Part shown: piece by piece, positions 5,509 through 24,813 of the stretch
How positions within the stretch are numbered: the stretch's first letter is position 1
How the letters are laid out: each line of letters begins with the position of its first letter
DNA from: Flintibacter sp. KGMB00164
GTDB taxonomy: Bacteria; Bacillota; Clostridia; Oscillospirales; Oscillospiraceae
DNA length: 64,000 nt
Assembly: GCF_008727735.1 (NCBI RefSeq)
Contig: NZ_CP044227.1
Span: forward strand, 1,488,001-1,552,000
Direction: 5' to 3'
Notes under the pieces: generated by a model
What the model saw: only the letters and a program-made list of their open reading frames with translations
Told to the model about the DNA's origin: nothing
Databases searched by the model: none
Translations under genes and position numbers: made by a program

Positions 5509-5540
5509 ACCCGGAGAACCCCTTGGTTCTCCGGGTTTTT
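5509..5540 (+). terminator. Terminator after the M56-M23 gene
   Basis: Perfect 12-base arms (5509-5520 and 5525-5536) around CCTT, followed by TTTT. Confidence 0.9.
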
Positions 5541-5562
5541 GTGTCTGTCCGTGGGAAATTCT

Positions 5563-5591
5563 TTGACAAGGAGAGCCCGGCAGGGTACAAT
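5563..5591 (+). promoter_or_regulatory. Promoter of the first B12/iron-type ABC importer
   Basis: TTGACA (5563-5568), 17 bases, TACAAT (5586-5591). It lies upstream of the TTG start at 5632 and excludes an in-frame ATG at 5539 as the true start. Confidence 0.85.
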
Positions 5592-5631
5592 ATGCCAGGA
5601 TAACCCAGAGTTTGTAAAGGAGGAGACAAAC

Positions 5632-6693: not shown

Positions 6694-6703
6694 GAATCCA
6701 AGC

Positions 6704-6737
6704 AGGGGGGAGGAAAACTCCTCCCCCCACTTTTTTT
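6704..6737 (+). terminator. Hairpin between binding-protein and permease genes
   Basis: GGGGGGAGG and CCTCCCCCC arms around AAAACT-type loop, followed by ACTTTTTTT. In an operon this would act as a partial terminator, giving excess binding protein over permease. Confidence 0.75.
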
Positions 6738-6827
6738 CTGTCCCTTTGGTATGCCCATCTTCCAGGAGGCGGGCGTACCAAAGAAACAGGATTTCTTTGA
6801 ATTTAATTGAAAAGGAGGAACACCGCC

Positions 6828-8703: not shown

Positions 8704-10101
8704 ATGGAGCGTTCCGGACAATTTGTGACGCCCTTCGATTTTGTTGGGCGTCTTCCCCTGCGTCAGGCCATTCCCCTGGGGCTTCAGCATGTGCTGGCCA
8801 TGTTTGTGGGTAACCTGACCCCCATCCTTATCATCACCAATCTGTGCGCCGCCACCAGCGGGGCAGAGGACTTTGCCGCCATCCAGGTAGTGCTGCTGCA
8901 AAATGCCATGCTGGTGGCCGGTCTGGTCACCCTGGTGCAGCTGTTTGCCATCGGCCCGGTGGGCGGCAAGGTACCCATCATCATGGGCACCAGCTCCGGC
9001 TTTATCGGCGTGTTCCAGAGCGTGGTCAACGTGATGGGCGGCGGCATCGTGGCCTATGGGGCCATTATGGGCGCTTCCATTTTAGGCGGTCTGTTTGAGA
9101 CGGTGCTGGGCGCATTCTTAAAGCCTCTGCGCCGCTTTTTCCCCGCCGTGGTCACCGGTACCGTAGTGCTGTCCATTGGCCTTTCCCTCATCAGCGTGGG
9201 CGTGGGCTCTTTCGGCGGCGGCACCAGCGCCAAGGACTACGGCTCTGTGGAGAACCTGCTCATCGCCCTGGCGGTGATGATCATCGTCCTGGCTCTCAAG
9301 CACGGAGCCAAGGGGCTGGCCAGCTCCTCCTGTATTCTCATCGGCATCGTCTGCGGCTACATCATCTGTGCCATTCTGCCCCTGTTCCTGTCCACCACCG
9401 GCGTCACCGCCGACGGGGTGGAGTACACCAAGGCGTGGGTTCTCAACTGGGACAAGGTAGCTCAGGCCAGCTGGGTTTCCATTCCTGCTCTGATGCCTGT
9501 CAAGCCGGTATTTGATCTGCGTGCCATCCTGCCTGTGATGATCATGTTCATCGTCACCGCCGTGGAGACGGTGGGCGACATCTCCGGCGTGATGGAGGGT
9601 GGCATGGGCCGGGAGGCCACCGATCAGGAGCTGGCTGGCGGAGTCATGTGCGACGGCCTGGGTTCCTCCTTCGCTGCTGTGTTTGGAGTGCTGCCCAACA
9701 CCTCCTTCAGCCAGAACGTGGGCCTGGTAACCATGACCAAGATCGTCAACCGTACCGCTCTGGCCTGCGGTGCCGTGTTCCTGGTGCTGTGCGGCCTGCT
9801 GCCCAAGCTGGCGGCCATTGTGTCCATCATGCCTCAGAGCGTGCTGGGCGGCGCGGCGGTCATCATGTTCTCCTCCATCGTGATGAGCGGTATCCAGCTC
9901 ATTACCAAGGAGCCCCTCACCGCCCGGAACATGTCCATCGTCTCAGTGGCTCTGGGTCTGGGCTACGGCCTGGGCGCCAACAGCGCGGTGCTCTCCGGCC
10001 TGCCCCAGTGGATCCAGCTGGTCTTCGGCGGCTCCGGCATCGTGCCCGCCGCCTTCGTGGCCATTATCATGAACATCCTGCTGCCCAAGGAAAAGGCGTA
10101 A
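8704..10101 (+). CDS. NCS2-family nucleobase (xanthine/uric acid-type) permease
   Basis: A 465-residue, highly hydrophobic protein of the nucleobase:cation symporter-2 family, with about 14 membrane segments. Hallmarks are the N-terminal GLQHVLAMF motif and the later VTAVETVGDISG segment (around residue 285), whose acidic residue binds the base in UraA/XanQ. The NT-x-F-SQN stretch (LPNTSFSQNVG, about 339-349) matches the purine-specific NCS2 signature. It lies directly upstream of a xanthine-dehydrogenase-type operon on the same strand, so I infer uptake of xanthine, hypoxanthine or urate. A terminator follows, so it is transcribed separately from the hydroxylase genes. Confidence 0.88.
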   Translation: MERSGQFVTPFDFVGRLPLRQAIPLGLQHVLAMFVGNLTPILIITNLCAATSGAEDFAAIQVVLLQNAMLVAGLVTLVQLFAIGPVGGKVPIIMGTSSGFIGVFQSVVNVMGGGIVAYGAIMGASILGGLFETVLGAFLKPLRRFFPAVVTGTVVLSIGLSLISVGVGSFGGGTSAKDYGSVENLLIALAVMIIVLALKHGAKGLASSSCILIGIVCGYIICAILPLFLSTTGVTADGVEYTKAWVLNWDKVAQASWVSIPALMPVKPVFDLRAILPVMIMFIVTAVETVGDISGVMEGGMGREATDQELAGGVMCDGLGSSFAAVFGVLPNTSFSQNVGLVTMTKIVNRTALACGAVFLVLCGLLPKLAAIVSIMPQSVLGGAAVIMFSSIVMSGIQLITKEPLTARNMSIVSVALGLGYGLGANSAVLSGLPQWIQLVFGGSGIVPAAFVAIIMNILLPKEKA

Positions 10102-10127
10102 ATTTCAACTTGATACGGTCAATTTTT

Positions 10128-10167
10128 CCGGGCGGACCCGATTTTTGTCGGGTCCGCCCGGATTTTG
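10128..10167 (+). terminator. Terminator after the purine permease gene
   Basis: CCGGGCGGACCCGA and its complement around a TTTTTG loop, followed by GATTTTGGTTT. Confidence 0.88.
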
Positions 10168-10169
10168 GT

Positions 10170-10198
10170 TTGTCAGAGTGGAAATAATATGGTATAAT
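10170..10198 (+). promoter_or_regulatory. Promoter of the xanthine dehydrogenase operon
   Basis: TTGTCA (10170-10175), 17 bases, TATAAT (10193-10198), 52 bases before the GTG start. Confidence 0.85.
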
Positions 10199-10250
10199 GA
10201 TATGCTTTATAAAACGAATACACAGCATGCCGCAACGGGGAGGAAATACT

Positions 10251-11045
10251 GTGCTGAAAATCAAAAACTATGTACGGGTCCAGAGCCTGGAAGAGGCCTA
10301 CGACCTGTGCCAAAAGAAAAACAACGTGGTGCTGGGCGGAATGCTTTGGCTGAAGATGCAGCGGCGTTCCATCGGCACCGCCATCGACCTGAGCGATCTG
10401 GGGCTGGACCAGATCGAGGAGGATGGAGAGTTTTACCGCCTGGGGGCCATGGTGTCTCTGCGCACGATGGAGCGCCACCACGGTCTCAATGAGCTGACCC
10501 AGGGGGCCATGGAGGAGAGCCTGCGCCACATCGTGGGCGTGCAGTTCCGCAATCTGGCTACTGTGGGCGGCAGCCTGTGGGGCCGCTTCGGCTTCTCCGA
10601 CGTGCTCACTCTGCTGCTAGCTCTGGATGCCCAGGTGGAGCTGCACCACGCCGGTCGGATGTCTCTGGAGGCGTTCACCCAGCTGCCCCGGCAGCAGCAT
10701 GACATTCTGACCCACGTGCTCATCCCCAAGGGGGCGAGCCAGGTGGTCTACCAGTCCCAGCGGAACATCTCCACCGACTTTCCCACCCTTACCTGCGCCC
10801 TGTCCAAGAAGGACGGGGAGTATACCTGCGTTATCGGTGCCCGGCCTCAGATGGCCCAGGTGTACCGGGACGAGAAGAGCCTGCTCTCCGGCGGCGTGAC
10901 CGAGGAGACCGCCCGGGCCTTTGGCGAGGACGTGGCCCAGCGGGCCAAGTTTGGCAGCAGCCTGCGGGCGGGGGAGGACTACCGCCGGGAGATTTGCGCC
11001 GTACTGGTGCGCCGTGGCCTGCTGGCCATGGAGAAGGAGGGCTAA
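10251..11045 (+). CDS. Xanthine dehydrogenase-type hydroxylase, FAD-binding subunit
   Basis: A 264-residue FAD_binding_5/CO_deh_flav_C subunit of the molybdenum hydroxylase family. The NNVVLGGML segment near residue 22 is the first FAD-contact loop, and RNLATVGGSLWGR near 100 is the second, conserved one (usual form T-I-GG-N). It transfers electrons from the iron-sulfur subunit to NAD(+) or another acceptor. I chose GTG at 10251 because GGGGAGG lies 7 bases upstream and the promoter -10 element overlaps the longer in-frame start. The stop is followed one base later by the ATG of the 2Fe-2S subunit. Confidence 0.88.
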   Translation: MLKIKNYVRVQSLEEAYDLCQKKNNVVLGGMLWLKMQRRSIGTAIDLSDLGLDQIEEDGEFYRLGAMVSLRTMERHHGLNELTQGAMEESLRHIVGVQFRNLATVGGSLWGRFGFSDVLTLLLALDAQVELHHAGRMSLEAFTQLPRQQHDILTHVLIPKGASQVVYQSQRNISTDFPTLTCALSKKDGEYTCVIGARPQMAQVYRDEKSLLSGGVTEETARAFGEDVAQRAKFGSSLRAGEDYRREICAVLVRRGLLAMEKEG

Positions 11046-11046
11046 C

Positions 11047-11508
11047 ATGGAACTGAAACTGACCTTGAACGGCCGGGCCGTGTCCGCATCGGTGGAAGCG
11101 GACACCCTGCTCATCGATTTTCTCCGCGCCCAGGGCTGCCTGAGCGTGAAGCGGGGATGCGAGACCGCCAACTGCGGCCTTTGTACCGTTTTGATGGACG
11201 GCACTCCCGTGCTGTCCTGCTCTGTGCTGGCTCTGCGGGCGGCGGGCCATCACGTCCAGACTCTGGAGGGCCTTCAGGAGGAAGCCGCCGACTTTGCCGC
11301 CTTTATCGCCGACCAGGGTGCGGAGCAGTGCGGCTTCTGTAACCCCGGCTTTGTGATGAACACCGTGGCCCTGCTGCGGGAGAACCCCGACCCCACCGAC
11401 GACGAGATCCGCGCCTATCTGGCCGGCAATCTGTGCCGCTGCTCGGGGTACGAGGGACAGCTGCGTGGCATACGTGCCTATCTGGACTATAAGAAGGGGA
11501 GGGGCTGA
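11047..11508 (+). CDS. Xanthine dehydrogenase-type hydroxylase, 2Fe-2S subunit
   Basis: A 153-residue small subunit with both expected clusters: an N-terminal plant-ferredoxin type cluster (RGCETANCGLCTVLMDG followed by a later Cys in LSC) and a C-terminal four-helix cluster (CGFCNPGF and CRCSGY). It wires the molybdenum site to the flavin subunit. AAGGAGGG ends the preceding gene and provides the ribosome binding site for the ATG at 11047. Length is normal for the family (150-165 residues). Confidence 0.92.
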   Translation: MELKLTLNGRAVSASVEADTLLIDFLRAQGCLSVKRGCETANCGLCTVLMDGTPVLSCSVLALRAAGHHVQTLEGLQEEAADFAAFIADQGAEQCGFCNPGFVMNTVALLRENPDPTDDEIRAYLAGNLCRCSGYEGQLRGIRAYLDYKKGRG

Positions 11509-11509
11509 G

Positions 11510-13801
11510 ATGGAAAACTTAAAGACCGTAGGCCAGCCGGTACGGAAAAAGGACGCCATGTCCCTGCTGCTGGGCAAGCCCGCTTATGTGGACGATGTGA
11601 CTCCCCAGAACTGCCTGGTGGTGAAGGTACTGCGCAGCCCCCACGCCCACGCCCTCATTGAGGAGATCAACACCGACGTGGCCCAGAAGGTGCCCGGCGT
11701 AGTTGCCGTATATACCTACAAGGATGTGCCCCAGAAGCGCTTTACCATGGCGGGGCAGACCTACCCCGAACCCTCTCCCTATGACCGTCTGATTCTGGAT
11801 CAGCGCGTCCGCTTTGTGGGCGATGCCGTGGCCATCGTGGCCGCCGAGGATGAGGCGGCCGCAGACAAAGCGCTGAAGCTTATCAAGGTGAAGTACCAGG
11901 TGCTGGAGGCGGTACTGGACCCCCACGAGGCCCTGGACGGACCCATTCTGGTGCACCCTGAGGACAACTGGCGCTCTCTGTGCCCGGTTGGCGCAGACAA
12001 CAAGCGCAACCTGTGCGCCAGCGAGGTGTGCTCGGACGGAGACGTGGATGACGTCCTGTCCCACTGTGACTATGTCATTGACCATGTCTACCATACCCCC
12101 GCCTGCAACCAGGCCATGATGGAGACCTTCCGCACCTATACCGAGATGGACCCCTACGGGCGGCTCCATGTTATTTCCTCTACCCAGATCGTTTTCCACG
12201 TCCGGCGTATTCTGGCCAACGCCCTGGACATTCCCAAGTCTAAGATCCACGTGGAGAAGCCCCGCATCGGCGGCGGTTTCGGCGCCAAGCAGACGGTGGT
12301 GGCGGAAATTTATCCCGCCTTTGTCACCTGGAAGACCGGCCGGGCGGCCAAGATGATCTACACCCGGGAGGAGAGCCTTATCGCCAGCTCCCCCCGCCAC
12401 GATATGGAGGTTCACGTCCGTCTGGGAGCCAGCAAGGACGGCACCATCCGTGCCATTGACGTGTACACCCTGTCCAACACGGGAGCCTATGGCGAGCACG
12501 GCCCCACCACCGTGGGCCTGTCGGGCCACAAGTCCATCCCCCTGTACACGGGCAACCTGGAGGCGTTCCGCTTTGCCTATGACGTGGTGTACACCAACCG
12601 CCAGTCCGCCGGAGCCTACCGCGGCTATGGCGCCACCCAGGGCATCTTCGCCGTGGAGTCGGCGGTGAACGAGCTGGCCGACATTCTGGGTATGGACCCG
12701 GTGACCATCCGGGAGAAGAACATGGTCCGAGAGGGCCAGGTCATGCCCGCCTATTACAATGAAAAGACCAACGCCTGCGCCCTGGACCGTTGCATGAGCC
12801 GGTGCGCCCAGCTCTTTGGCTGGGAGGAGAAGTTCCCCGTTCGGGATATGGGCAACGGCAAGGTGCGCTCCGCCGGCGTGGCTATGGCCATGCAGGGCTC
12901 CGGCATCTCCGGGGTGGACGTAGGTTCGGCCACCATCAAGCTCAGCGACGAGGGATTCTATAACCTGTCCATCGGCGCGGCGGACATGGGTACCGGGTGC
13001 GACACCATCCTGGCCCAGATGGCCGCCGAGTGCCTGGACTGCCCCGTGGACAACATTGCGGTCTTCGGCGCTGACTCTGACGCCTCCCCCTACGACTCGG
13101 GCTCCTACGCCTCCTCCACCACCTACGTCACCGGCAAGGCAGTAGAACGGGCCTGCGAGCAGCTGAAAGAAAATCTCTGCGCCATTGCCGCCCAGATGCT
13201 GGACTGTAAACCAGAGGACGTGGAGTTTACCGGAAAGGGCGTGCGCCGTCTGGACGGCAAGGGAGAGGTTTCCCTCATGGACATTGCCACCAAGTCCATG
13301 TGCGGCAACGCCATTCCCGTCCAGGTGACCTACACCCACACCTCTCCCGTCTCGCCGCCTCCCTTCATGGTGGGTATGGCCGAGATCGAAGTGGACAAGG
13401 AGACCGGCGGGGTAGAGGTTCTCGACTACGTGGCCGTGGTGGACTGCGGCACCCCCATCAACCCCAACCTGGCCCGGGTACAGACTGAGGGCGGCATTGT
13501 CCAGGGCATCGGCATGGCTCTCTTTGAGGGCATCACCTACGATGAGAAGGGCAACCTGCTGGAGAACTCCTTCATGCAGTACAAGATCCCCACCCGTCTG
13601 GACATGGGCCACCTGCGGGTGGAGTTTGAGTCCAGCTACGAGCCCACCGGCCCCTTCGGCGCCAAGTCCATCGGCGAGATCGTCATCAACACCCCGTCTC
13701 CCGCCATTGCTCACGCCATCTTCCGGGCCACCGGCGTATGGCACCGGGAGCTGCCCATCACTCCGGAGAAGGTGCTCATGGCCATGAAGGCCAAGGGATG
13801 A
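11510..13801 (+). CDS. Xanthine dehydrogenase-type hydroxylase, molybdopterin-binding subunit
   Basis: A 763-residue catalytic subunit of the xanthine oxidase family. The N-terminal aldehyde-oxidase hammerhead domain (about 15-125) is followed by the molybdopterin-binding domains. GGGFGAKQ (about residue 254) and AYRGYGATQG (about 367) are the cofactor-contact glycine-rich loops, and PFGAKSIGE near 716 carries the catalytic glutamate. The enzyme hydroxylates a purine or other N-heterocycle; the upstream NCS2 permease supports xanthine or hypoxanthine. Its ATG lies one base after the 2Fe-2S gene stop, and its stop overlaps the next ATG (ATGA). Confidence 0.9.
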   Translation: MENLKTVGQPVRKKDAMSLLLGKPAYVDDVTPQNCLVVKVLRSPHAHALIEEINTDVAQKVPGVVAVYTYKDVPQKRFTMAGQTYPEPSPYDRLILDQRVRFVGDAVAIVAAEDEAAADKALKLIKVKYQVLEAVLDPHEALDGPILVHPEDNWRSLCPVGADNKRNLCASEVCSDGDVDDVLSHCDYVIDHVYHTPACNQAMMETFRTYTEMDPYGRLHVISSTQIVFHVRRILANALDIPKSKIHVEKPRIGGGFGAKQTVVAEIYPAFVTWKTGRAAKMIYTREESLIASSPRHDMEVHVRLGASKDGTIRAIDVYTLSNTGAYGEHGPTTVGLSGHKSIPLYTGNLEAFRFAYDVVYTNRQSAGAYRGYGATQGIFAVESAVNELADILGMDPVTIREKNMVREGQVMPAYYNEKTNACALDRCMSRCAQLFGWEEKFPVRDMGNGKVRSAGVAMAMQGSGISGVDVGSATIKLSDEGFYNLSIGAADMGTGCDTILAQMAAECLDCPVDNIAVFGADSDASPYDSGSYASSTTYVTGKAVERACEQLKENLCAIAAQMLDCKPEDVEFTGKGVRRLDGKGEVSLMDIATKSMCGNAIPVQVTYTHTSPVSPPPFMVGMAEIEVDKETGGVEVLDYVAVVDCGTPINPNLARVQTEGGIVQGIGMALFEGITYDEKGNLLENSFMQYKIPTRLDMGHLRVEFESSYEPTGPFGAKSIGEIVINTPSPAIAHAIFRATGVWHRELPITPEKVLMAMKAKG

Positions 13802-14373
13802 ACCACATGATCCTGCTGGCGGCGGGCTCGTCCCGCCGCTTCGGCGGCAACAAGCTGCTGGCTCCCTTAAATGGAAAGCCCCTGTATACCTGGGGGCTGA
13901 GCGCTCTGAATGACGTGTGCCAAAAGCGTGGAGACTGCACCCTCACCGTGGTCTCCCGCTACCCTGAAATTCGGAAAGCTGCACAGGCTGTCGGCGCTCA
14001 GGCGGTGGACAGCCCGGACAGCGAAAAGGGCCAGGCCTACTCCATCCGCTCGGGTCTCCAGGCCCTGGGCAGGGTAGAGGAGAGGGACTTCATTCTCTTT
14101 CTCCCCGCCGACCAGCCCTGGATCACACCCCAAACCATTTCCCGCCTGCTGGAGGCCGCCGGTCCGGATACCTGGACAGCCACCGCCGCTTTTGGAGAGC
14201 GTGTGGGGACGCCAACCTTGTTTTCCGCCCGGCTTCTCCCGGACCTGATGGCCCTGGAGGGGGATCGCGGCGGGCGAAAGCTGATGGGCCGCCCGGGACA
14301 GCTCTGCCTGGTGGTTCCGACCGGGTCAGAGCGGGAGCTGGACGACGTGGACTACCCGGAACAATTAAAATAA
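13798..14373 (+). CDS. MocA-type molybdopterin cofactor nucleotidyltransferase
   Basis: A 191-residue MobA/MocA-like protein with the N-terminal NTP-binding motif LLAAGSSRRFGGNK (residues 5-18), and a LPADQPWI segment (about 100) that holds the metal-binding aspartate. MocA links CTP to molybdopterin to make the dinucleotide cofactor used by xanthine-dehydrogenase-type enzymes; the coupling here (4-base ATGA overlap with the Mo subunit gene) supports that role rather than a protein glycosylation role. It could also include selenium-specific maturation factors, which I cannot distinguish by eye. Confidence 0.82.
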   Translation: MNHMILLAAGSSRRFGGNKLLAPLNGKPLYTWGLSALNDVCQKRGDCTLTVVSRYPEIRKAAQAVGAQAVDSPDSEKGQAYSIRSGLQALGRVEERDFILFLPADQPWITPQTISRLLEAAGPDTWTATAAFGERVGTPTLFSARLLPDLMALEGDRGGRKLMGRPGQLCLVVPTGSERELDDVDYPEQLK

Positions 14374-14416: not shown

Positions 14417-15922
14417 TTAAAAGCGCTTGATTTTCTTGGAGGGAGTTTTCTCGAACTCGGTCTCCCGGACGATCAGGCTGTAAATCTTCTTGTGGGGAGG
14501 CGCTTGGAGATTGTACTGGTCGATGATCTCCTGAAGGGCGGCGCGTACGTCCTTGATGTGCTTCTTCTTGGCGTACTCGTAGTCGGGGAAGATCTCGGCC
14601 TCGATGACGCTCTTGTTCTCCCGCACCAGCACCTCCTGGATAAGACGCTCCACACCCAGCTTGTTTTCCAGCTCCTCGGGGGAGACGTTCTCACCGTTTT
14701 TGGTGATGATGAGGTTTTTCTTGCGGCCGGTGAGGTAGACAAAGCCCTCCTCGTCCACATAGCCCAGGTCGCCGGTCTTCAGCCAACCGTCCTCCAGGGT
14801 GGCGGCGGTCTCCTCGGGCATTTTGTAGTAGCCCTGCATCACGCTGCTGCCCCGGACCCACAGCTCGCCATCCACCGTCTTGGCCTCGCAGTTATCGATG
14901 AGCTGGCCCACGGCGTTTTTGTTGATGTTCCAGGGACGGGTGGTGCTGATGACGGGGGAGCACTCGGTCATACCGTAGCCCTGGAGGATGGTGATGCCGT
15001 ACTTTTCAAACAGGTCGATGTAGGAGGGATCCAGGTATGCGCCGCCGCTGGAGATCTTGGTTAGCTGCTTGCCAAACACCGCGTTCTTCACCAGCTTGGG
15101 AGGCAGCAGGGTGTTGTCCTCCAGCTTCTTGGCGATGGTCTCGATCATCAGGGGGACCATCAGGATCATCTCAGGCTTGAAGAGCTGGATGTTCTTCATC
15201 ACCCGCAGCAGGGAGTCGTTGATGCAGATAATGGAGCCCAGAGAGATGGCCTTGAGCACGTCGAGACACAGGCAGTAGGCATGGTGGATGGGCAGCACAG
15301 AGAGCAGCACCATCCGCTCAGGCAGGTCCATGTTGATGCTGCCGGCGTTCTCGGCCAGGTTGCGGTGGGTGAGCATGACGCCCTTGCTCTTGCCGGTGGT
15401 GCCGGAGGTAAACATGATGGTACACAGCTGGTCAGGCTGGGGTTCAAAGTCAAAGGCAGTCTGGTGCTCTGCCAGCAGCTGGGGGAAGGAGAGAACGGCG
15501 TCGCTGTGCTCCTCCTGCTGCATGAGCACCACGTGCTTCAACTTGGGGCAGTGCTCCTTGGCTCCCTCGGCCACGTCCTTGCGGGCGGCGTCGGCCACCA
15601 GGGTGGTCACGTCAGCCCGGTCCAGCAGCTCCCACACGTCGGCGGCGGGGAGGGAGGCGTCCAGAGGGACAGCCACGCTGCCGCTGTTGACGATGCCCAG
15701 ATAGGTCACCATCCAGCGGTAGGAGGTGGGGCCGATGACGGCGATGTGGCTGCCCTGCTCGCCCAGAGCGGCCAGGGAGCTGGAAAAGCTCTCGCTGTCT
15801 TGGCGGAGCTGGTTGTAGGTCTTGTCCTCAATCTGGTTCTTGCCCACCTTATAACGCACGGCCACCTCGGGGCCAAAGCGCTGCTGGGCCTCCACCAGGA
15901 TCTCGCGGATGGTACTGGTCAT
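14417..15922 (-). CDS. AMP-forming acyl ligase (stand-alone adenylation enzyme)
   Basis: A 501-residue ANL-superfamily adenylating enzyme. The P-loop-like motif IMFTSGTTGKSKGVML (about 168-183), the GYGMTECSP motif (about 321) and the TGD motif (about 386) are intact. The C-terminal catalytic lysine sits in TPSKKIKRF at the very end. It resembles long-chain fatty-acyl ligases more than amino-acid-activating NRPS domains. It is the last gene of a five-gene minus-strand operon and follows a carrier-protein gene by 17 bases, so I infer that it loads an acyl group on that carrier (or on CoA). The natural substrate cannot be read from the sequence. Confidence 0.85.
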   Translation of the reverse strand: MTSTIREILVEAQQRFGPEVAVRYKVGKNQIEDKTYNQLRQDSESFSSSLAALGEQGSHIAVIGPTSYRWMVTYLGIVNSGSVAVPLDASLPAADVWELLDRADVTTLVADAARKDVAEGAKEHCPKLKHVVLMQQEEHSDAVLSFPQLLAEHQTAFDFEPQPDQLCTIMFTSGTTGKSKGVMLTHRNLAENAGSINMDLPERMVLLSVLPIHHAYCLCLDVLKAISLGSIICINDSLLRVMKNIQLFKPEMILMVPLMIETIAKKLEDNTLLPPKLVKNAVFGKQLTKISSGGAYLDPSYIDLFEKYGITILQGYGMTECSPVISTTRPWNINKNAVGQLIDNCEAKTVDGELWVRGSSVMQGYYKMPEETAATLEDGWLKTGDLGYVDEEGFVYLTGRKKNLIITKNGENVSPEELENKLGVERLIQEVLVRENKSVIEAEIFPDYEYAKKKHIKDVRAALQEIIDQYNLQAPPHKKIYSLIVRETEFEKTPSKKIKRF

Positions 15923-15939
15923 AGTTCTTACTCCTGTTC

Positions 15940-16167
15940 TCAGTCAGCCAGGCTCTGGATGTAGTCCACGGCCTCGCCCACGGTGCGAATCTTAACCACC
16001 TCGGTCTCGTCCACCTCGATGTCGAAGGTGTCCTCGATCTCGCCCAGCATACTCATAAAGTCAAAGGAGGTAAAGCCCAGGTCCTCCATAAAGCGGGAGT
16101 CGGAGGTGATCTTCTCGGGCTCCACTTCTACGTAGTTGCAGATGATCTCAACCAATTTCTCAAACAT
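15940..16167 (-). CDS. Acyl/peptidyl carrier protein
   Basis: A 75-residue carrier protein with the acidic four-helix pattern. The phosphopantetheine attachment serine is S34 in DLGFTSFDF; the usual sequence is (D/G)xDS(L/I), so the site is slightly unusual but plausible. It is much more divergent than a housekeeping fatty-acid AcpP, and it lies between an adenylating enzyme and a condensation-domain protein, which points to a dedicated carrier for that pathway. A ribosome binding site (AGAGGA) precedes the ATG. Confidence 0.88.
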   Translation of the reverse strand: MFEKLVEIICNYVEVEPEKITSDSRFMEDLGFTSFDFMSMLGEIEDTFDIEVDETEVVKIRTVGEAVDYIQSLAD

Positions 16168-16182
16168 AATCCGATTCCTCTT

Positions 16183-17589
16183 TTACACTAATTTGATGAT
16201 CTCACCGATGGTGAGGTCGGGATTCTCAACGCCCTTGAACATGATCTTGCACAGATAGTAATAGAAGTACTCCAGCTCCTCCCGGGAGAAGGCCTTTACC
16301 TGGTGCTCGAAGTTGAAGTCCAGGCCGTTGTCCTCGGGGCGGTGCATGACGGTCAGGTACACGGCCTGGGGGGTCATGCCGTTGGGATACCACTTGGTGG
16401 TGTAGCGGATATCGCCCAGCTGATCCAGTCCCTTCTCCTTCAGGGTGAGGGGCTGGTAGGTCAGGGAGATGGGCTCATAGGTCAGACCGGCGTGGGGCTG
16501 GGGATAGGTCTTGGCACGGTAGGCAAAGTAGGCGGTGGGATCGTAGTTGGCGTGGCGGAAGTACTCGTTCTGCTTGTCCCGGATGGCGTAGATGGCATCA
16601 ATGAACTTCATGTCCTGGCTAAAGCAGGTGCGGAAGGGGAAGGAGTGGATGCGGGTGCCGCCTGACTTCTTCTCCTTCAGGGTGGCGCGGCGGGCGATGG
16701 CGTTGTTGATGGACACATCGTCGTGGCCGTTCACCTTCTGGAAGTAGGTGCGCATGCCCATGAGCAGCAGGCACACCAGGGAGACATGGTACTCCTCGCA
16801 GAAGTTCATCAGCCGCTGGGTGGGCTCACCCTCCAGGTGGAAGATATCCAGGGCAGAGGTGGTGTCGCCGGAGGCGTTGAAGGCGGTGCGAAGGTTGGGG
16901 TTCTGGAACATCTGACGGGCGGCCTCCAGCTTGTCGGTGCCCTTCATGCCGTTGTAGATGGGCTCGGAGGACTCGATCTCCTTCTGGAAGAACTCCATGT
17001 CCCGCAGCTGGGCCTTGCTGCCCGCCTCGTAAGCCAGATCCTTCTGGATCTGCTCGATGTAGGAGGCCATCTCCTTGGGAGCAGGGACACCCTCATACTT
17101 CTGGCTGCAGTAGAGCTCAATGATGTCCTTGAGGAAGCCGATGAGGGACTGGGCGTCCACGATCATGTGGTGGCCCAGGAAGTACACGCCGTTAAAGCCG
17201 TCGGGCAGGCTGATCATCACAATCCGGGTGAGGGGGGAGTCTTCCATCTTAAAGGGGACGGTGGTCCACTGCTGCATCACCTTGTCGGCCTCTTCCAGGG
17301 TGCCCTGGGAGAAGTCCACAAACTCGATGTCCCGCTCTTCCTTGTCCACCACGTACTGGTAGTAGGTGCCGTCCTTGTCCTTGGCAAAGCGGACCCGCAT
17401 GCCCTCGCAGCGGTCGTAGGCCTGATAGATGGACTGCTTGAGCAGGTCCCAGTCGATCTCGGACTGGATGGTCAGACGGGTGCCGATGTTCATGACCGCC
17501 GCGCTGGGGCAGTAGGGGAGATAAAACAGGTGAAATTTCTGCGCTACGGTCAAGGGATAAACCGGATAACCTTTATGTTTGCGCATCAT
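16183..17589 (-). CDS. Stand-alone condensation-domain protein
   Basis: A 468-residue protein of the NRPS condensation / acyltransferase superfamily. The active-site HHxxxD motif is present as H140-H141-MIV-D145, with Ala in place of the usual Gly after the Asp. The second half (about 230-468) gives the other chloramphenicol-acetyltransferase-like lobe. Stand-alone C domains condense a carrier-bound acyl group with a free or carrier-bound amine or alcohol. The ATG overlaps the stop of the hydrolase gene (ATGA), and the carrier-protein gene follows by 15 bases, so these three proteins are very probably partners. Substrate unknown. Confidence 0.82.
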   Translation of the reverse strand: MMRKHKGYPVYPLTVAQKFHLFYLPYCPSAAVMNIGTRLTIQSEIDWDLLKQSIYQAYDRCEGMRVRFAKDKDGTYYQYVVDKEERDIEFVDFSQGTLEEADKVMQQWTTVPFKMEDSPLTRIVMISLPDGFNGVYFLGHHMIVDAQSLIGFLKDIIELYCSQKYEGVPAPKEMASYIEQIQKDLAYEAGSKAQLRDMEFFQKEIESSEPIYNGMKGTDKLEAARQMFQNPNLRTAFNASGDTTSALDIFHLEGEPTQRLMNFCEEYHVSLVCLLLMGMRTYFQKVNGHDDVSINNAIARRATLKEKKSGGTRIHSFPFRTCFSQDMKFIDAIYAIRDKQNEYFRHANYDPTAYFAYRAKTYPQPHAGLTYEPISLTYQPLTLKEKGLDQLGDIRYTTKWYPNGMTPQAVYLTVMHRPEDNGLDFNFEHQVKAFSREELEYFYYYLCKIMFKGVENPDLTIGEIIKLV

Positions 17590-18524
17590 TTGATAATTCC
17601 TCCAATAAATTTGTCCAGGGCCTCTTCGTACTCCTGGGTATTCTTATAGTAGCTCTCCACATGGCCTGCGCCCTCCACAATAAGCTTGGTCTTGGGCGCG
17701 GCGCAGTTTTCATACAGCTCGTCGCACATATAGGGGGGAACAAAGGTGTCCTTGCTGCCGTGGATGAACAGCATGGGGACCCTGGCCTTTCGTACCTCCC
17801 GGGCGGCGTTGCAGTCGTCCAGACCGTAGCCTGCCAGGCGCTTGTTGACCTTGTCGGCCAGGGGGATCATGGGGGTGGCAGGCAGGTGGTACATGCTGTG
17901 CAGCACGTGGGTGAAGACATACTTGGGGGAGGTGAAGGCGGAGTCGGAGATAATGCCCTTCACCTGGGGAGGCAGGTCCAGGCCGCTGACCATGCACACA
18001 GTGGCGCCGCCCATGGAGCCGCCGTGAAGGATGATCTGGGCATCCTGACCAACCTTGTCCACCGTCCAGCGGATCCACTCCAGGGCGTCCAGCCGGTCCA
18101 TGCAGCCAAAGCCGATGTACTTGCCCTCGCTCTCTCCGTGGGAGCGCTGGTCGATGATCAAAGCGCCAAAGCCCCGACTCATAAAGCACCGGGCCAGGCT
18201 GGGGTACTCACCCATACCGTAGCTGGTGTAGCCGTGGAAACAGATGACCACTTTGTTGCTTGGACCGGGGAAATAGGTGCCGTGGAGCTTCAGGCCGTCA
18301 TGAGAGAGGATACCAACCTCCTCATGGGGCTGCTGGAGCAGCCAGTCCCGGTTCTCGTGCATCCGGGGATAGTACTGGCTCCAGTCGATGCCCGACATCT
18401 TGGCGCTGCGCTCGGGCTTGGCGTTGGTGCGGATCATGGTGCGGCGGTAGAAGTAGGCGGTGCCCAGACCCTCTGCCGCAGCCGCCAGACCTGCCAGAAC
18501 GGCGGCTTTTTTCAGCAATCCCAT
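17586..18524 (-). CDS. Membrane-anchored alpha/beta hydrolase
   Basis: A 312-residue alpha/beta hydrolase. The first 25 residues are a hydrophobic N-terminal anchor. The oxyanion segment CFHGYTSYG (about 100) is followed by the nucleophile in HGGSMGGA (about 175-182), the acid in HGSKD (about 260) and the histidine in GAGHVESY (about 290). The family includes thioesterases and lipases (BAAT-like and YqkD-like proteins). In this operon it could release product from the carrier protein or hydrolyse a lipid precursor. Its stop overlaps the condensation gene start, giving translational coupling. Confidence 0.82.
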   Translation of the reverse strand: MGLLKKAAVLAGLAAAAEGLGTAYFYRRTMIRTNAKPERSAKMSGIDWSQYYPRMHENRDWLLQQPHEEVGILSHDGLKLHGTYFPGPSNKVVICFHGYTSYGMGEYPSLARCFMSRGFGALIIDQRSHGESEGKYIGFGCMDRLDALEWIRWTVDKVGQDAQIILHGGSMGGATVCMVSGLDLPPQVKGIISDSAFTSPKYVFTHVLHSMYHLPATPMIPLADKVNKRLAGYGLDDCNAAREVRKARVPMLFIHGSKDTFVPPYMCDELYENCAAPKTKLIVEGAGHVESYYKNTQEYEEALDKFIGGIIK

Positions 18525-18528
18525 AACA

Positions 18529-18864
18529 TCAGCCCTTTCTCTTCCGGGCCAGCAGGTCGCCCAGCTTCAGGGCCTTGTCGATGTTGCCCTCCACCTTCAG
18601 CTTGCCGGTGGTAAAGGCCAGCACAGGGTCGGTCTTGCCCTTGGCCAGCTTAAACAGGGTGTCCGCGGTGCAGATGAACATCACGTCCCGGTCAAAGTAC
18701 TCGTAGGGCTCGATGTACAGCTTGCCCTCCTTGACCTCGGCGTAGAAGATGCCCTCGGCCTCCCCGATGATGTTGAATTGGTAGGCCAGATGCTCCTGGA
18801 TATCACTGACATCTGCTCCCGCCAGCATACCTTTTACTTCGGAAAACATGTCTGCGTATGTCAT
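18529..18864 (-). CDS. SCP2-like sterol/lipid-binding protein
   Basis: A 111-residue SCP-2 fold protein (about 20-110; the LAFTTGKLKVEGNIDKALKL stretch is typical). SCP2 domains bind fatty acyl chains, acyl-CoA or sterol-like molecules in a hydrophobic tunnel. The ATG at 18864 follows GGAGGATCCC; a longer in-frame reading would run through the promoter and operator. It is the first gene of the operon, 4 bases before the hydrolase gene. A small lipid carrier next to an acyl ligase, a carrier protein and a condensation enzyme suggests a lipid-handling product. Confidence 0.85.
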   Translation of the reverse strand: MTYADMFSEVKGMLAGADVSDIQEHLAYQFNIIGEAEGIFYAEVKEGKLYIEPYEYFDRDVMFICTADTLFKLAKGKTDPVLAFTTGKLKVEGNIDKALKLGDLLARKRKG

Positions 18865-18879
18865 TGGGATCCTCCTTTT

Positions 18880-18941
18880 TTCGACCGACGGTCGAAACAA
18901 TTCTAAGGGTAGCCTAGCACGTTTTCGACCGCCGGTCAATA
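18880..18941 (-). promoter_or_regulatory. Promoter and two TetR operators of the SCP2-condensation operon
   Basis: Operator 1 is a perfect palindrome, TTCGACCG-A-CGGTCGAA (18880-18896). Operator 2 (18923-18941) is the near-palindrome TTTCGACCG-C-CGGTCAATA. On the minus strand operator 2 contains a -35 hexamer TTGACC (18939-18934), and 17 bases on is TAGGCT as -10. Thus one operator covers -35 and the other lies just after the start of transcription, the standard arrangement for repression by the divergent TetR protein. Confidence 0.8.
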
Positions 18942-19069
18942 CATTTTCCTTCCAATTAACAAGCAAAATGAAAGATTTGGTAATTATTTCATTTGTGCTG
19001 GGAAAAAACTGTGCTATACTGTAAAAAATGAAGGTGCTGGTAAAATTTAAGCGAGAAGGATGGAACACC

Positions 19070-19687
19070 ATGGCCAAGGACCAGAAAAAATATGATTTGA
19101 TTTTAGACGCGCTCCAGCAGCTGCTGCGGGAGCGCAGCGTACAGACCATCTCCGTCAGCGACATTGCCCAGGCTGCGGGGATCGGGAAGGGGAGCATCTA
19201 TTATTATTTCCCCTCTAAGGACGCCATTGTGGAGGCTCTGGTCCAGCGCAATTACGAAGCGCCCCTGAAAACGGCCCAGAGCCTGTCCGCCCGGCAGGAC
19301 ATTCCGCCCTTTACCCGCATGGCTATGATTTTCCAGGCCTGCCGCTCCTCGTCCACGGAGTACTCCAAGTCGGAGGCCAGTACCGGGGATGGGGCCGGTG
19401 CCCAGGAGAAGGCCTTTCTCCATCAGACCTACATGAACCACCTGATCACCGAGCTCAAGCCGGTGCTGGCCGAGATCATCCGTCAGGGAATCCAGGCCGG
19501 AGAGATCCACTTTGACCACCCCGACGAGCTGGCCGAGATGGTGCTCATCATTCTCACAGTAAAGATGGACAACACCATCGTTCCCTCTACGAAAGAGGAG
19601 ATCGAGGGGACCATTACCGCCCTGGTGTCCCTGCTGGAGAAGGGGACAGAGAATCCGCCGGGGTCGCTGGACTTCCTTATTAAATAA
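19070..19687 (+). CDS. TetR/AcrR-family repressor, divergent from the condensation operon
   Basis: A 205-residue TetR protein. The N-terminal helix-turn-helix (about 10-56) has the usual SVSDIAQAAGIGKGSIYYYF form; the C-terminal ligand domain is not assignable. The ATG at 19070 has AGAAGGA at 10 bases upstream. It is transcribed away from the SCP2 gene, and the 205-base intergenic region holds two operator-like palindromes, so I infer control of the neighbouring operon and perhaps itself. In similar gene pairs the effector is often an acyl-CoA or a fatty acid, which would fit, but this is not shown here. A possible promoter is TTTGTG (18992-18997) with TATACT (19015-19020). Confidence 0.88.
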   Translation: MAKDQKKYDLILDALQQLLRERSVQTISVSDIAQAAGIGKGSIYYYFPSKDAIVEALVQRNYEAPLKTAQSLSARQDIPPFTRMAMIFQACRSSSTEYSKSEASTGDGAGAQEKAFLHQTYMNHLITELKPVLAEIIRQGIQAGEIHFDHPDELAEMVLIILTVKMDNTIVPSTKEEIEGTITALVSLLEKGTENPPGSLDFLIK

Positions 19688-19743: not shown

Positions 19744-20544
19744 TCAGGCCTTACGTTTCTTTTTTCCATGGTCCAGGATGTATGCCATGCACTGATAGCT
19801 CATCAGCTGCACCATCCACAGCCCGCCCACCAGCAAAATCCAGCCCGACGGGGCCAGGCCGTTGTCGGCCAAGATAAACAACACCAGCATCACGATGGGG
19901 AAGAGGGTGCTCATCACCCGGAAGGAGAAATAGCTGCACTGGCCGATCTGCTGCTGCTCGGCCTCGTCGCAGCTGCGGAACCAGTCCTTCTGGAACTTGC
20001 TGTCAAATACGTTGCCCTTCTTCTCCGGGTGGATGACCTTGGTGGCCTTCACCGTCAGGGCCTGGAGGGCCACCACCCAGACCAGCTGAACGACCAGATT
20101 GACAATGAACAGCACGCCTTCCATCAGGCCGCCGATACGCAGAATATGATCTCCCAGCCACATGGCCTGGTTGTTGGCCCAATCAGTCTGTCCATTGATG
20201 CCCAGGGCGATAAACAGCCACACTACGGCCGCTCCGGAGAGGATCAGGGACAGGCACAGCCGACGGTCAGACTCCTGAAAGGCGTCGTCATCTGCCTCTG
20301 CCTGGGGCAGCAGGGCCTTGCCCCGGAGATAATAGATGGTGCTCACCACCAGCAGCACATACCCGGGGATAAACCACAGCTGGCCCAGAGACGCCAGTGC
20401 CATGTTCAGACTGTCTGCGGAATCAAGTAAATTTTTTCCTGCCATGGCGGCACAGAAGCCCGCCACGCCGCCCAAAGCGGCACACACCAGAATCGTAATT
20501 GCAAACCGGGCATAGATTGCTTTATTGCTACGTTCCTTTTTCAT
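19744..20544 (-). CDS. DUF3169-like integral membrane protein
   Basis: A 266-residue membrane protein with about six hydrophobic segments (about 13-35, 48-68, 95-118, 138-165, 210-232, 236-258). The arrangement with a small XRE regulator overlapping its start by 4 bases is characteristic of DUF3169 proteins in clostridia and bacilli. No enzymatic motif is visible and the function is unknown. It may be a membrane target of the stress response controlled by its partner regulator. Confidence 0.65.
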   Translation of the reverse strand: MKKERSNKAIYARFAITILVCAALGGVAGFCAAMAGKNLLDSADSLNMALASLGQLWFIPGYVLLVVSTIYYLRGKALLPQAEADDDAFQESDRRLCLSLILSGAAVVWLFIALGINGQTDWANNQAMWLGDHILRIGGLMEGVLFIVNLVVQLVWVVALQALTVKATKVIHPEKKGNVFDSKFQKDWFRSCDEAEQQQIGQCSYFSFRVMSTLFPIVMLVLFILADNGLAPSGWILLVGGLWMVQLMSYQCMAYILDHGKKKRKA

Positions 20545-20756
20545 TGTTCCTCATCCTCCTCGGTGAGATAAAATACCTCGTCTACTGTCGTTCCAAATAC
20601 CTTTGCGATGCGCAGGGCCAAAGTGATAGAGGGGTTGTAGTCCCCCCGCTCAATGAGGCTGATGGTCTGGCGGGACGCTCCCACCAGCGATCCCAGCCCC
20701 TGCTGGTTAAGCCCCTTCGCCGCCCGCAGCTCTTTCAGTCGGTTCCCAAGCGGCAT
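20541..20756 (-). CDS. Small XRE/Cro-type regulator (DUF3169 partner)
   Basis: A 71-residue helix-turn-helix protein (KLRAAKGLNQQGLGSLVGAS, then RQTISLIERGDYNPSI), close to the YvaO/YozG single-domain class. It overlaps the DUF3169 gene (ATGA). Its promoter on the minus strand reads TTGACA (20846-20841), 17 bases, TATCCT (20823-20818), and a 12-base inverted repeat with arms 20794-20805 and 20835-20846 brackets the promoter, so autoregulation is likely. Confidence 0.85.
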   Translation of the reverse strand: MPLGNRLKELRAAKGLNQQGLGSLVGASRQTISLIERGDYNPSITLALRIAKVFGTTVDEVFYLTEEDEEQ

Positions 20757-20793
20757 ATTGCAGTCTCCTTTCGTGACAAGAATCTATGTCGTT

Positions 20794-20846
20794 TTGACAA
20801 CTATCTTTGTCATCAATAGGATAGCATTGACAAGGATAGTTGTCAA
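20794..20846 (-). promoter_or_regulatory. Promoter and inverted-repeat operator of the XRE/DUF3169 pair
   Basis: Perfect 12-base arms TTGACAACTATC (20794-20805) and GATAGTTGTCAA (20835-20846) separated by 29 bases. The distal arm contains the -35 hexamer of the minus-strand promoter, so a looped or doubly bound regulator would block RNA polymerase. Confidence 0.7.
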
Positions 20847-20869
20847 TAGGAGGAGGGAAACTTTTCTCT

Positions 20870-21679: not shown

Positions 21680-22942
21680 ATGGGTATGACAATGACACAG
21701 AAAATCCTGGCCAAGCATGCCGGGCTGGACCACGTGGAGGTTGGCCAGCTCATTGAGGCCAAGGTGGACATGGTCCTGGGCAACGACATCACCACCCCCG
21801 TGGCCATCACCGAGTTTGAGAAGGCCGGCTTCAGCCAGGTCTTTGATAAGGACAAGATCTCCATCGTCCTGGACCACTACACCCCCTGCAAGGACATCAA
21901 GTCCGCCGAGCTGTGCCTGAAGGCCCGCAACTTTGCCCACAAGCACAGCATCACCAATTTCTTTGATGTAGGCCAGATGGGCGTGGAGCACGCCCTGCTC
22001 CCCGAAAAGGGCCTGTGCGCTCCCGGCGAGATCATCGTGGGCGCCGACTCCCACACCTGCACCTACGGCGCTCTGGGCGCCTTCTCCACCGGCATCGGAT
22101 CCACCGACATGGCCGCCGCCATGGCCACCGGCCTGCTGTGGTTCAAGGTGCCCGCCGCCATTAAGGTCACCTTGAAGGGCAAGCTCCAGCCCATGGTATC
22201 CGGCAAGGACGTGATTCTCCACCTGATCGGCGAGATCGGCGTGGACGGCGCCCTCTACCAGTCCCTGGAGTTTGCCGGGGAGGGCGTTTCCTCTCTCACC
22301 ATGGACGACCGCTTCACCATCTCCAACATGGCCATCGAGGCCGGCGGCAAGAACGGCATCTTCCCCGTGGACGAGAAGACCATGGAGTACATCAGCGGCC
22401 GGGTGAACCGTCCCTGCGAGGCCTTCGAGGCCGACGCCGACGCCGAGTATGTCCGCGAGGTGGTCATCGATCTGGACAAGCTGGAGCCTACCGTGGCTAT
22501 GCCTCACCTGCCTGAGAACACCAAGGTGGTTTCTGAGGTGGCTGGTCTGCCCATCAACCAGGTGGTTATCGGCTCCTGCACCAACGGCCGCATCAGCGAT
22601 CTGCGCGCCGCCGCTGCGGTGATGAAGGGCAAGAAGGTGGCCGACAACGTGCGCTGCATCGTGATCCCTGCCACCCAGGAGATCGTGCTCCAGGCCATGA
22701 AGGAGGGACTCATCGAGACCTTCATCGAGGCTGGCGCCGCTGTTTCCACCCCCACCTGCGGTCCCTGCCTGGGCGGACACATGGGCGTGATGGCCGAAGG
22801 GGAGCGCACCGTCTCCACCACCAACCGCAACTTCGTAGGCCGTATGGGTCATGTCACCAGTGAGGTCATTCTGGCCTCTCCCGCCGTGGCCGCCGCCTCC
22901 GCCATTGCCGGCTGTGTCGCCGACCCCCGCACGCTTTCTTGA
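21680..22942 (+). CDS. leuC: 3-isopropylmalate dehydratase, large subunit
   Basis: A 420-residue aconitase-family protein of the LeuC/HacA type, which isomerises 2- to 3-isopropylmalate in leucine synthesis. The 4Fe-4S ligand cysteines are visible in GSCTNGR (about 297) and [11 protein letters not shown] (about 356), and the active-site [12 protein letters not shown] segment lies near 117. The 420-residue length is that of the archaeal/clostridial type of LeuC, with a separate small subunit. GGAGGAAG precedes the ATG. The small-subunit gene follows after an unusual 312-base structured gap. Confidence 0.93.
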
Positions 22943-23254
22943 AAGCTGAGAAGTACAACCTATCGTTAGACCCTCCTACCATAGGATTCGGAGGGAAAGA
23001 TAATGTGAAAGAAAACCGTCAGGGTTGTCTTTCACGTGCAATAAACCCACTTTTTCAAACTTTAAAAGTTTGAAAAAGTGCTGCAGCTTGGCGAAAAGAA
23101 TTTTTCGCCAAGCTGGCAAAGAACTTTGTGCGAAACTTCGTTTCGCTTCTGGGGTTTTCGGAAGGAGAGAGGAGGACAGAGACGCCCTTCGTTTTTCGGT
23201 CCATATTCCCTCCCGGCCCCAAAATCTAGATTGATTAGAAAGGATTGAGACCTG
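22943..23254 (+). other. Structured gap between leuC and leuD with four hairpins
   Basis: No gene is visible. Four hairpins follow one another: 23005-23035, a perfect 16-base-arm repeat 23048-23080, a perfect 14-base-arm repeat 23084-23115 and a 7-base-arm hairpin 23130-23146. The last lies within a 27-base core (23118-23144) that recurs at 26330-26356. The insert breaks an otherwise tight leuCDB operon and may be a mobile or REP-like repeat, or an mRNA-processing site. Confidence 0.7.
23118..23144 (+). repeat. Dispersed repeat core, copy 1
   Basis: A 27-base core (AAAGAACTTTGT, two variable bases, GAAACTTCGTTTC) that matches 26330-26356 at 25 of 27 positions. It includes a GAAAC-TTC-GTTTC hairpin. 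Confidence 0.75.
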
Positions 23255-23736
23255 ATGAAGGTTTATAAATACGGCGCCAACGTGGATACCGACGTCATCA
23301 TCCCCGCCCGCCACTTGAACGATCCCTCTCCTGCCGCCTTGGCCTCCCACTGCATGGAGGACATCGACGCAGATTTCGCCTCCACCGTCCAGCCCGGCGA
23401 CATCATCGTGGCCGGTCCCAACTTTGGCTGCGGCTCCTCCCGTGAGCACGCACCTCTGGCCATCAAGTCCTGCGGCGTGAAGTGCGTCATCGCCCCCTCT
23501 TTTGCCCGCATCTTCTACCGCAACGCCATCAACATCGGCTTCCCCATCGTGGAGTGCGCCCAGGCTGCCGAGGAGATCCAGCCCGGCGACCAGGTGGATG
23601 TAGATTTTTCTACTGGTATCATCACCGACACTACCCAGGGTAAGACCTGGCAGGCTGCGCCCTTCCCCGAGTTCATCAAGGGCATCATTGAAAGCGGCGG
23701 CCTGCTCAACTCTCTGAAGGCCCGGGGGGTGGCGAA

Positions 23737-23740
<4 letters not shown>
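23255..23740 (+). CDS. leuD: 3-isopropylmalate dehydratase, small subunit
   Basis: A 161-residue small (swivel) subunit. [13 protein letters not shown] (residues 11-23) and the substrate-binding loop [11 protein letters not shown] (about 59-69) are typical of the LeuD/HacB type that pairs with the short LeuC. The stop overlaps the leuB ATG by 4 bases, so leuD and leuB are translated as a unit. Confidence 0.93.

Positions 23741-24813
<1,073 letters not shown>

What the first reader, a model, noticed from the sequence alone, without database searches (positions are those of the whole stretch)
14417..19687. Candidate undescribed biosynthetic operon: SCP2 lipid carrier, hydrolase, stand-alone condensation domain, carrier protein and acyl ligase
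Five tightly spaced minus-strand genes (gaps of 4, -4, 15 and 17 bases) assemble the parts of a minimal non-ribosomal acyl-condensing system without any multidomain synthetase: an AMP ligase, a divergent carrier protein (S34), a C domain with HHMIVD, a membrane-anchored hydrolase and an SCP2 lipid binder. A divergent TetR gene controls it. Seen: motifs, order and coupling. Inferred: a fatty acyl group is loaded and condensed with an amine or alcohol, giving a lipid-type small molecule. I know of no described pathway with precisely this set.
Basis: partly seen in the sequence, partly recalled or inferred. Interest (0 to 1): 0.85.

Follow-up and report, generated by a model that had tools for sequence, protein, structure and literature searches.

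The report
Lipid-amide operon with added lipid carrier
A gut bacterium carries a repressor-controlled set of five genes that probably joins fatty acids to small amines, a known kind of pathway, here with two extra lipid-handling genes that are kept together in many related gut bacteria.

Summary
In detail: SCP2, membrane-tethered alpha/beta hydrolase, stand-alone condensation (C) protein, carrier protein and acyl ligase, plus a divergent TetR gene. The core is not undescribed. The C protein's best PDB match is OaaC, 12KH (E 6e-112, next 4e-12; 40% identity), the fatty-acid-amide condensation enzyme of Coprococcus eutactus, and C-T-A is the order of the published acyl-amine cassette. A tree separates both from 10 modular NRPS C domains (support 100), but in different branches.

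What I found in no paper passage seen is the extended form. In 348 genomes of one family (Lachnospiraceae by named members), 33 of 47 C loci belong to the window's group: hydrolase in 33, SCP2 in 31, TetR in 26; SCP2 is in 0 of the other 14. Two TetR-type operators 43-45 bp apart occur in 71 of 75 divergent regions examined, around a conserved promoter. The SCP2 is probably orthologous to a cholesterol-induced SCP2 of Blautia hominis, reported without mention of acyl amides.

Verdict: new variant of a known kind. Product, acceptor and hydrolase role are inferred.

The parts
14417..15922 (-). Acyl ligase (A), 501 aa: AMP-binding enzyme expected to activate a fatty acid and load the carrier protein
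   Evidence: PF00501 219 bits, PF23562 C-terminal domain 29 bits; TSGTTG, YGMTE, TGD and C-terminal Lys positions conserved at 98% or more in 112 rows, duplicates included
15940..16167 (-). Acyl carrier protein (T), 75 aa, DLGFTSFD with Ser34 for phosphopantetheine
   Evidence: PF00550 51 bits; NCBIfam: one acyl-carrier model above its cut-off (NF002150, 68 against 66 bits), TIGR00517 just under; Ser34 conserved at 98% or more in 119 rows
16183..17589 (-). Stand-alone condensation protein (C), 467-468 aa, motif HHMIVDA; FAA-type
   Evidence: PF00668 136 bits; best PDB match 12kh_A = OaaC, E 6e-112, full length, 40% identity; tree
17586..18524 (-). Membrane-tethered alpha/beta hydrolase, 312 aa, Ser170-Asp259-His288
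18529..18864 (-). SCP2 lipid-binding protein, 111 aa
18881..18895 (.). Downstream TetR-type operator TCGACCGACGGTCGA, just before the SCP2 ribosome-binding site
   Evidence: conserved pair
18911..18939 (-). Operon promoter: -35 TTGACC (18939-18934), 17-base spacer, -10 TAGGCT (18916-18911)
   Evidence: TTGAC-N17/18-TAnnnT in 71 of 71 paired-operator regions; that it is the promoter is inferred
18925..18939 (.). Upstream TetR-type operator TCGACCGCCGGTCAA, overlapping the -35 box
19070..19687 (+). Divergent TetR-family regulator, 205 aa (mechanical ORF from 19028)
   Evidence: PF00440 53 bits, PF21303 36 bits; divergent neighbour over 100 bits in 26 of 33 sampled loci

Best explanation
It is a TetR-repressed operon that makes N-acyl amides: an extended form (SCP2-hydrolase-C-T-A) of the fatty-acid-amide CTA cassette. 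Proposed working: free fatty acid or another membrane-active lipid releases TetR from two operators that bracket the promoter (site and promoter layout shown by conservation; binding and ligand inferred). SCP2 picks up fatty acid and hands it over at the membrane; the membrane-tethered hydrolase, catalytic side in the cytosol, frees fatty acid from acyl esters or clears mis-loaded acyl groups (inferred). The ligase adenylates the fatty acid and loads the carrier; the C protein transfers the acyl group to a freely diffusing amine (by homology to OaaC). Likely benefit: turning toxic free fatty acids into harmless amides, as proposed for Blautia wexlerae. The host, an Oscillospiraceae bacterium, probably acquired the operon from Lachnospiraceae.
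For: C protein matches OaaC (12KH) over its whole length at E 6e-112, next PDB match 4e-12, with no gap over the stretch of OaaC's insertion helix. Tree: 77 stand-alone rows incl. OaaC apart from 10 modular NRPS C domains, support 100 (five short or partial rows left out). Motif HHxxxDA lies within the published FAA range (second His >99%, Asp conserved, next residue Ser 42%, Ala 36%, Gly 17%); 119 of 119 rows with C above 500 bits have Ala there. Order C-T-A as in the CTA operon. Gene set: hydrolase 33 of 33, SCP2 31 of 33, TetR 26 of 33 group loci of the family sample. Operator pair: 71 of 75 regions against 1 of 1500 shuffled; 103 of 118 loci with C >500 bits against 0 of 34 with C 200-500 bits. 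SCP2 fold, with a fatty-acid-bound relative. TetR's best NCBIfam model is a FadR-type fatty-acid regulator, but far below its cut-off (40.5 against 200 bits). CTA+ Blautia and Coprococcus made more acyl amines than CTA-, and amines rescued growth in fatty acids.
Against: No product, acceptor or ligand was tested for any SCP2-type cassette that I could identify. The window C is only 40% identical to OaaC and lies in another branch; the first motif residue varies (D 62, H 26, N 20, Q 10, S 1 of 119 rows). The apparent B. hominis orthologue of SCP2 was reported to bind cholesterol and be induced by it, which a pure fatty-acid model does not predict. The hydrolase's substrate is unknown; fold neighbours include esterases, thioesterases and monoglyceride lipases alike. 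The FadR-like TetR match is weak.
Confidence: 0.66

Rival explanations
1. Same machinery, different acceptor: the C protein of the SCP2 branch makes an ester with a hydroxyl lipid (sterol, bile acid, glycerol type), and SCP2 delivers that acceptor rather than the fatty acid.
For: SCP2 is a lipid/sterol binder; the apparent B. hominis orthologue binds cholesterol and is induced by it; SCP2 is absent from 14 of 14 loci outside the window's group in the family sample; motif ends DA in 119 of 119 rows, against DS in OaaC and most OaaC-type rows.
Against: The nearest characterised enzyme makes amides and is strict for small amines; no sterol or bile-acid ester is mentioned in the B. hominis passages seen; SCP2 domains also bind fatty acids (1pz4).
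Confidence: 0.14
2. FAA synthesis, but hydrolase and SCP2 form a recycling or immunity arm: the hydrolase cleaves the amide (or acyl-carrier thioester) and SCP2 removes the product from the membrane.
For: Hydrolase is the most faithful extra partner (33 of 33), overlaps the C gene by 4 bases, and its nearest folds include the thioesterase DcsB and the hydrolase GrgF.
Confidence: 0.12
3. The operon is a sterol-modifying pathway, as the B. hominis authors suggest, with SCP2 as an NAD-dependent cholesterol-oxidising protein and the condensation protein as its partner.
For: Induction by cholesterol, cholesterol binding and NAD-dependent activity reported for RS03310.
Against: SCP2 here is 111 aa with a plain SCP2 fold over its whole length; an acyl ligase, carrier and C protein have no evident place in sterol oxidation; the core is the FAA cassette.
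Confidence: 0.06
4. Degenerate remnant of a modular NRPS or a housekeeping fatty-acid gene group.
For: Same Pfam families as modular NRPS.
Against: Tree separates it from modular C domains at support 100; catalytic residues and regulatory layout conserved across many genera.
Confidence: 0.02

Closest known systems
CTA / fatty-acid-amide cassettes of gut Clostridia (Chang et al. 2021, recalled, not held; described in PMC13142362 and PMC13060934)
   Same: Free-standing condensation protein, carrier protein and acyl ligase in the order C-T-A; gut Bacillota; no acceptor carrier domain
   Different: Described there as three free-standing proteins or a three-gene operon; the window form adds SCP2, a membrane hydrolase and a TetR with a two-operator promoter
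OaaC / OaaACP / OaaA of Coprococcus eutactus (PDB 12KH; oleoyl aminovaleric acid)
   Same: C protein homologous over full length, same side of the tree against NRPS
   Different: Other branch, 40% identity; motif DHRLMDS against HHMIVDA; none of the 16 rows grouped with it has an SCP2 neighbour; its own flanks were not seen
Blautia wexlerae CTA operon (PMC13060934)
   Same: Acyl amine synthesis and relief of fatty-acid toxicity give a function for such cassettes in live cells
   Different: I could not identify this species among the loci, so whether it is of the SCP2 form is not known
Blautia hominis HA2291 RS03310 SCP2 with condensation protein RS03300 (PMC13029680)
   Same: SCP2 two locus-tag steps from a condensation protein; window SCP2 has the named residues I22, Y28, F30 and L101 at the same numbers, and I10 and G21 occur there in other rows; three large genomes of the Blautia genus carry SCP2-hydrolase-C-T-A
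   Different: Authors read it as a sterol pathway. Named tail residues N103, F104, Q107, A108, N109 are not those of the window (D, L, R, K, R), and their stated 63% identity to rabbit SCP2 is far above the 26% of the window SCP2 with 1c44. Sequence not seen, so orthology is inferred

Membership tests
Fatty-acid-amide (CTA) cassette | Free-standing C protein of the FAA clade, distinct from modular NRPS C domains | tested here: met
   12KH best match; support 100 for 77 stand-alone rows incl. OaaC against 10 NRPS rows. Only 10 Clostridia NRPS domains served as outgroup; C-starter domains, the published nearest clade, were not included
Fatty-acid-amide (CTA) cassette | Adjacent separate carrier protein and acyl ligase, order C-T-A | tested here: met
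   published order
Fatty-acid-amide (CTA) cassette | Motif (D/H)HxxxD followed mostly by S, A or G | tested here: met
   HHMIVDA; published frequencies
Fatty-acid-amide (CTA) cassette | Transfers acyl from carrier to a free amine, giving an amide | not testable with these tools
   Needs in vitro reconstitution
Fatty-acid-amide (CTA) cassette | Homodimer that gives way to a C-carrier complex with holo/acyl-carrier | not testable with these tools
   Reported for OaaC
SCP2 lipid-binding family | PF02036 match and SCP2 fold | tested here: met
Alpha/beta serine hydrolases | GxSxG nucleophile, Asp and His in order | tested here: met
   S170, D259, H288 in 129 of 129 rows, duplicates included
Modular NRPS | C, A and carrier domains in one multidomain protein | tested here: not met
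   Separate genes
FadR-type fatty-acid TetR regulators | NCBIfam FadR model above its cut-off | tested here: not met
   40.5 bits against 200

The most novel reading that the evidence does not exclude
The SCP2 branch is a separate chemistry, not just a dressed CTA cassette: a lipid-inducible system in which SCP2 presents a host sterol, bile acid or other lipid alcohol to the condensation protein, so that many gut Lachnospiraceae acylate host lipids with it.
Probability: 0.12. Interest if true: 0.82.

Novelty: new variant of a known kind. Interest (0 to 1): 0.52.

Why it matters
FAA cassettes make host-active signalling lipids and may protect commensals from fatty acids. In the family sampled, the form with SCP2 and hydrolase was commoner than the rest (33 against 14 loci), so accessory proteins and regulation that the papers seen leave out may be the rule. 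It gives a sharp operator-promoter layout to test for the inducing lipid, and it probably links a cholesterol-responsive SCP2 of Blautia with acyl-amide synthesis, two subjects reported apart.

Tried and rejected
Rejected: remnant of a modular NRPS (tree); housekeeping carrier/ligase pair; 'conserved across Oscillospiraceae' (in 300 genomes of the host's family only G000, G181 and G038 had a stand-alone C at E <= 1e-40). A wider TetR regulon in the host could not be judged: at up to 1 mismatch the pattern hit three places, the two operon sites and one imperfect site at 907769, while the reversed control pattern hit 9 per strand. No conserved seventh gene: best flanking family 18 of 119 loci. 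No empty site could be shown: the closest congener G1036 has the same operon in a collinear region at 87-90% DNA identity, and in the fetched contigs of G1056 and G1064 only window 19754-20860 matched, without a C gene.

Weak points: the operator consensus was chosen after seeing the sites, shuffles keep base composition only, and related loci are not independent. The 112-, 118-, 119- and 129-row counts hold at least 9 genomes twice, judged by equal contig lengths (for example L084 and L175, L104 and L181). The group of 33 was set by C score (over 500 bits, plus the truncated L208). Of the 4 regions without a pair, some were cut short; upstream of C, 15 of 118 loci lack the pair, and 11 of these lack a TetR neighbour over 100 bits in the data held. 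In the sample two group loci lack SCP2: L056 with ample flank, and L207 with 1,855 bases upstream. Among the other 14, four have a distant hydrolase homologue on the same strand nearby and a fifth (L214) one on the other strand, so the hydrolase is not exclusive to the group. SCP2 also occurs in L072, downstream of the ligase, and in L073, which lies outside the 43-row branch; the tree needs 4 changes of the SCP2 label, 3 by well-supported branches alone. The tree was the quick method with several long branches; L068, L070, L083, L208 and L218 were left out of it.

Literature: of PMC13142362 I saw the abstract, introduction, results on solution state, crystal structure and phylogeny with the start of the mass-photometry part, discussion, bioinformatics methods, data statement, legends and a term search; of PMC13060934 two results sections and passages; of PMC13029680 passages. 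Chang et al. 2021 is recalled; it is not held, so whether its figures show SCP2 or hydrolase neighbours is unknown. 'Not in print' rests on searches in an open-licence library only.

Full report
WHAT IS THERE. The window holds, on the minus strand in order of transcription, SCP2 (18529-18864), an alpha/beta hydrolase (17586-18524), a stand-alone condensation protein (16183-17589), a carrier protein (15940-16167) and an acyl ligase (14417-15922), with a divergent TetR gene (19070-19687). Every assignment passes its Pfam cut-off.

WHAT THE CORE IS. The condensation protein's best match among solved structures is 12kh_A, E 6e-112 over residues 9-467; the next is 4e-12; identity is 40% over 459 columns. 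The paper's data statement names 12KH as OaaC of Coprococcus eutactus, an enzyme that joins carrier-bound fatty acid to a free amine. FAA-type C proteins are reported as their own clade, with motif (D/H)HxxxD then mostly Ser (42%) or Ala (36%); the window has HHMIVDA. A second paper calls the three-gene C-T-A operon an acyl-amine cassette, found homologues in 36 species, all Lachnospiraceae, in a search of 7,781 isolate genomes, and reports that CTA+ Blautia and Coprococcus made more acyl amines and that amines rescued growth in free fatty acids. So the core is of a known kind.

WHERE IT SITS IN THE FAMILY. I compared C proteins from 300 genomes of the host's family, 394 of its order, 391 of its class and 348 of the family of G846, overlapping in part, plus 80 named loci. 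In a tree of 87 rows the 77 stand-alone C proteins, OaaC among them, are apart from 10 modular NRPS C domains (support 100). OaaC lies in a set of 17 rows (support 99), none of the others with an SCP2 neighbour; the window lies in a 43-row branch (support 90) of which 40 have SCP2, nested among Lachnospiraceae, with its two Oscillospiraceae relatives L084 and L085 as a group of three (support 100). That points to transfer into Oscillospiraceae. G846's family is taken as Lachnospiraceae because its member G1105 gives a C identical to that of Blautia sp. An81, on a contig of the same length.

THE EXTENDED UNIT. In the 348-genome sample 46 genomes hold 47 C loci at E <= 1e-60. The window's group (33 loci) has hydrolase in 33, SCP2 in 31, TetR over 100 bits in 26; 25 have all six genes. 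The other 14 have SCP2 in 0 and a same-strand hydrolase homologue in 4. Of the 80 named loci 72 have all six genes, 5 lack only TetR, 1 lacks only the ligase (311 bases downstream of C held); the remaining two (L136, L159) have 1,114 and 278 bases upstream of C. The commonest flanking family is in 18 of 119 loci.

REGULATION. Between TetR and SCP2 lie two palindromes, TCGACCGACGGTCGA and TCGACCGCCGGTCAA. With at most 2 mismatches to YGACCRNYGGTCR, 75 of 75 divergent regions (73 named loci, L057 and the window) have at least one site and 71 a pair 43-45 bp apart; of 1500 shuffled regions 163 have a site and 1 a pair. In all 71 the upstream site carries TTGAC, followed after 17 (66) or 18 (5) bases by TAnnnT. 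The upstream operator thus overlaps a -35 box and the downstream one precedes the ribosome-binding site, a layout for repression. Within 2.5 kb upstream of C the pair is in 103 of 118 loci with C above 500 bits and 0 of 34 with C at 200-500 bits. TetR binding itself is inferred.

A PROBABLE LINK BETWEEN TWO LITERATURES. In Blautia hominis HA2291 the SCP2 gene RS03310 is induced by cholesterol, its protein binds cholesterol, and its predicted partner is RS03300, a condensation-domain protein; the authors suggest a sterol pathway. RS03305 is not mentioned. Of the residues they name, I22, Y28, F30 and L101 stand at the same numbers in the window SCP2, and I10 and G21 in other rows of the family (window V10, D21); N103, F104, Q107, A108 and N109 do not fit the window's tail, and their stated 63% identity to rabbit SCP2 does not fit the 26% found here with 1c44. 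Three 5-6 Mb genomes of the Blautia genus carry TetR, SCP2, hydrolase, C, T, A in this order. I infer that RS03310 is probably the SCP2 of this operon; its sequence was not seen.

HOW IT MOST LIKELY WORKS. Shown: gene set, conserved order, catalytic residues, conserved promoter-operator layout, homology of C to an amide-forming enzyme. Inferred: acyl loading and amide formation; fatty acid or a related lipid as TetR ligand; SCP2 as carrier of that lipid; hydrolase as source of fatty acid or as editor. The main doubt is the acceptor; the SCP2 pattern and the cholesterol data leave room for a lipid-alcohol acceptor.

NOVELTY. A new variant of a known kind. I found no description of the six-gene form in the passages and searches listed, but the founding paper was not available.

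Noticed in passing
window 8704-14373 (+): Purine-type permease, three xanthine-dehydrogenase-like subunits and a MobA/MocA-like transferase in a row (the first four named by eye, the last): looks like a purine or xanthine use operon, convergent with the acyl operon.
   Followed up: no
window 19744-20756 (-): DUF3169 protein followed by a small HTH regulator (by eye); this stretch matches two congeners (G1056, G1064) at 73% DNA identity where no C gene was found on the fetched contigs.
   Followed up: partly
window 5539-8631 (+): By eye, binding protein, permease and ATPase of a metal/haem-type ABC importer.
   Followed up: no
window 21680-24813 (+): By eye, large and small isopropylmalate-dehydratase-like subunits and an isopropylmalate-dehydrogenase-like gene.
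   Followed up: no
L075, L078, L079, L219, L220: FAA-type stand-alone C proteins with no ligase or carrier found by homology in the stretch held; L219 and L220 form their own pair in the tree.
   Followed up: no
L061-L063, L080-L082: One family (f42) with a hydrolase-C-T-A form lacking SCP2, TetR match and the operator pair, motif DHMIMDS or DHMAWDS: a possible intermediate form.
   Followed up: partly
L088/L178 and L160: Loci with the operator pair but no TetR match over 100 bits nearby, although several kb upstream are held.
   Followed up: no
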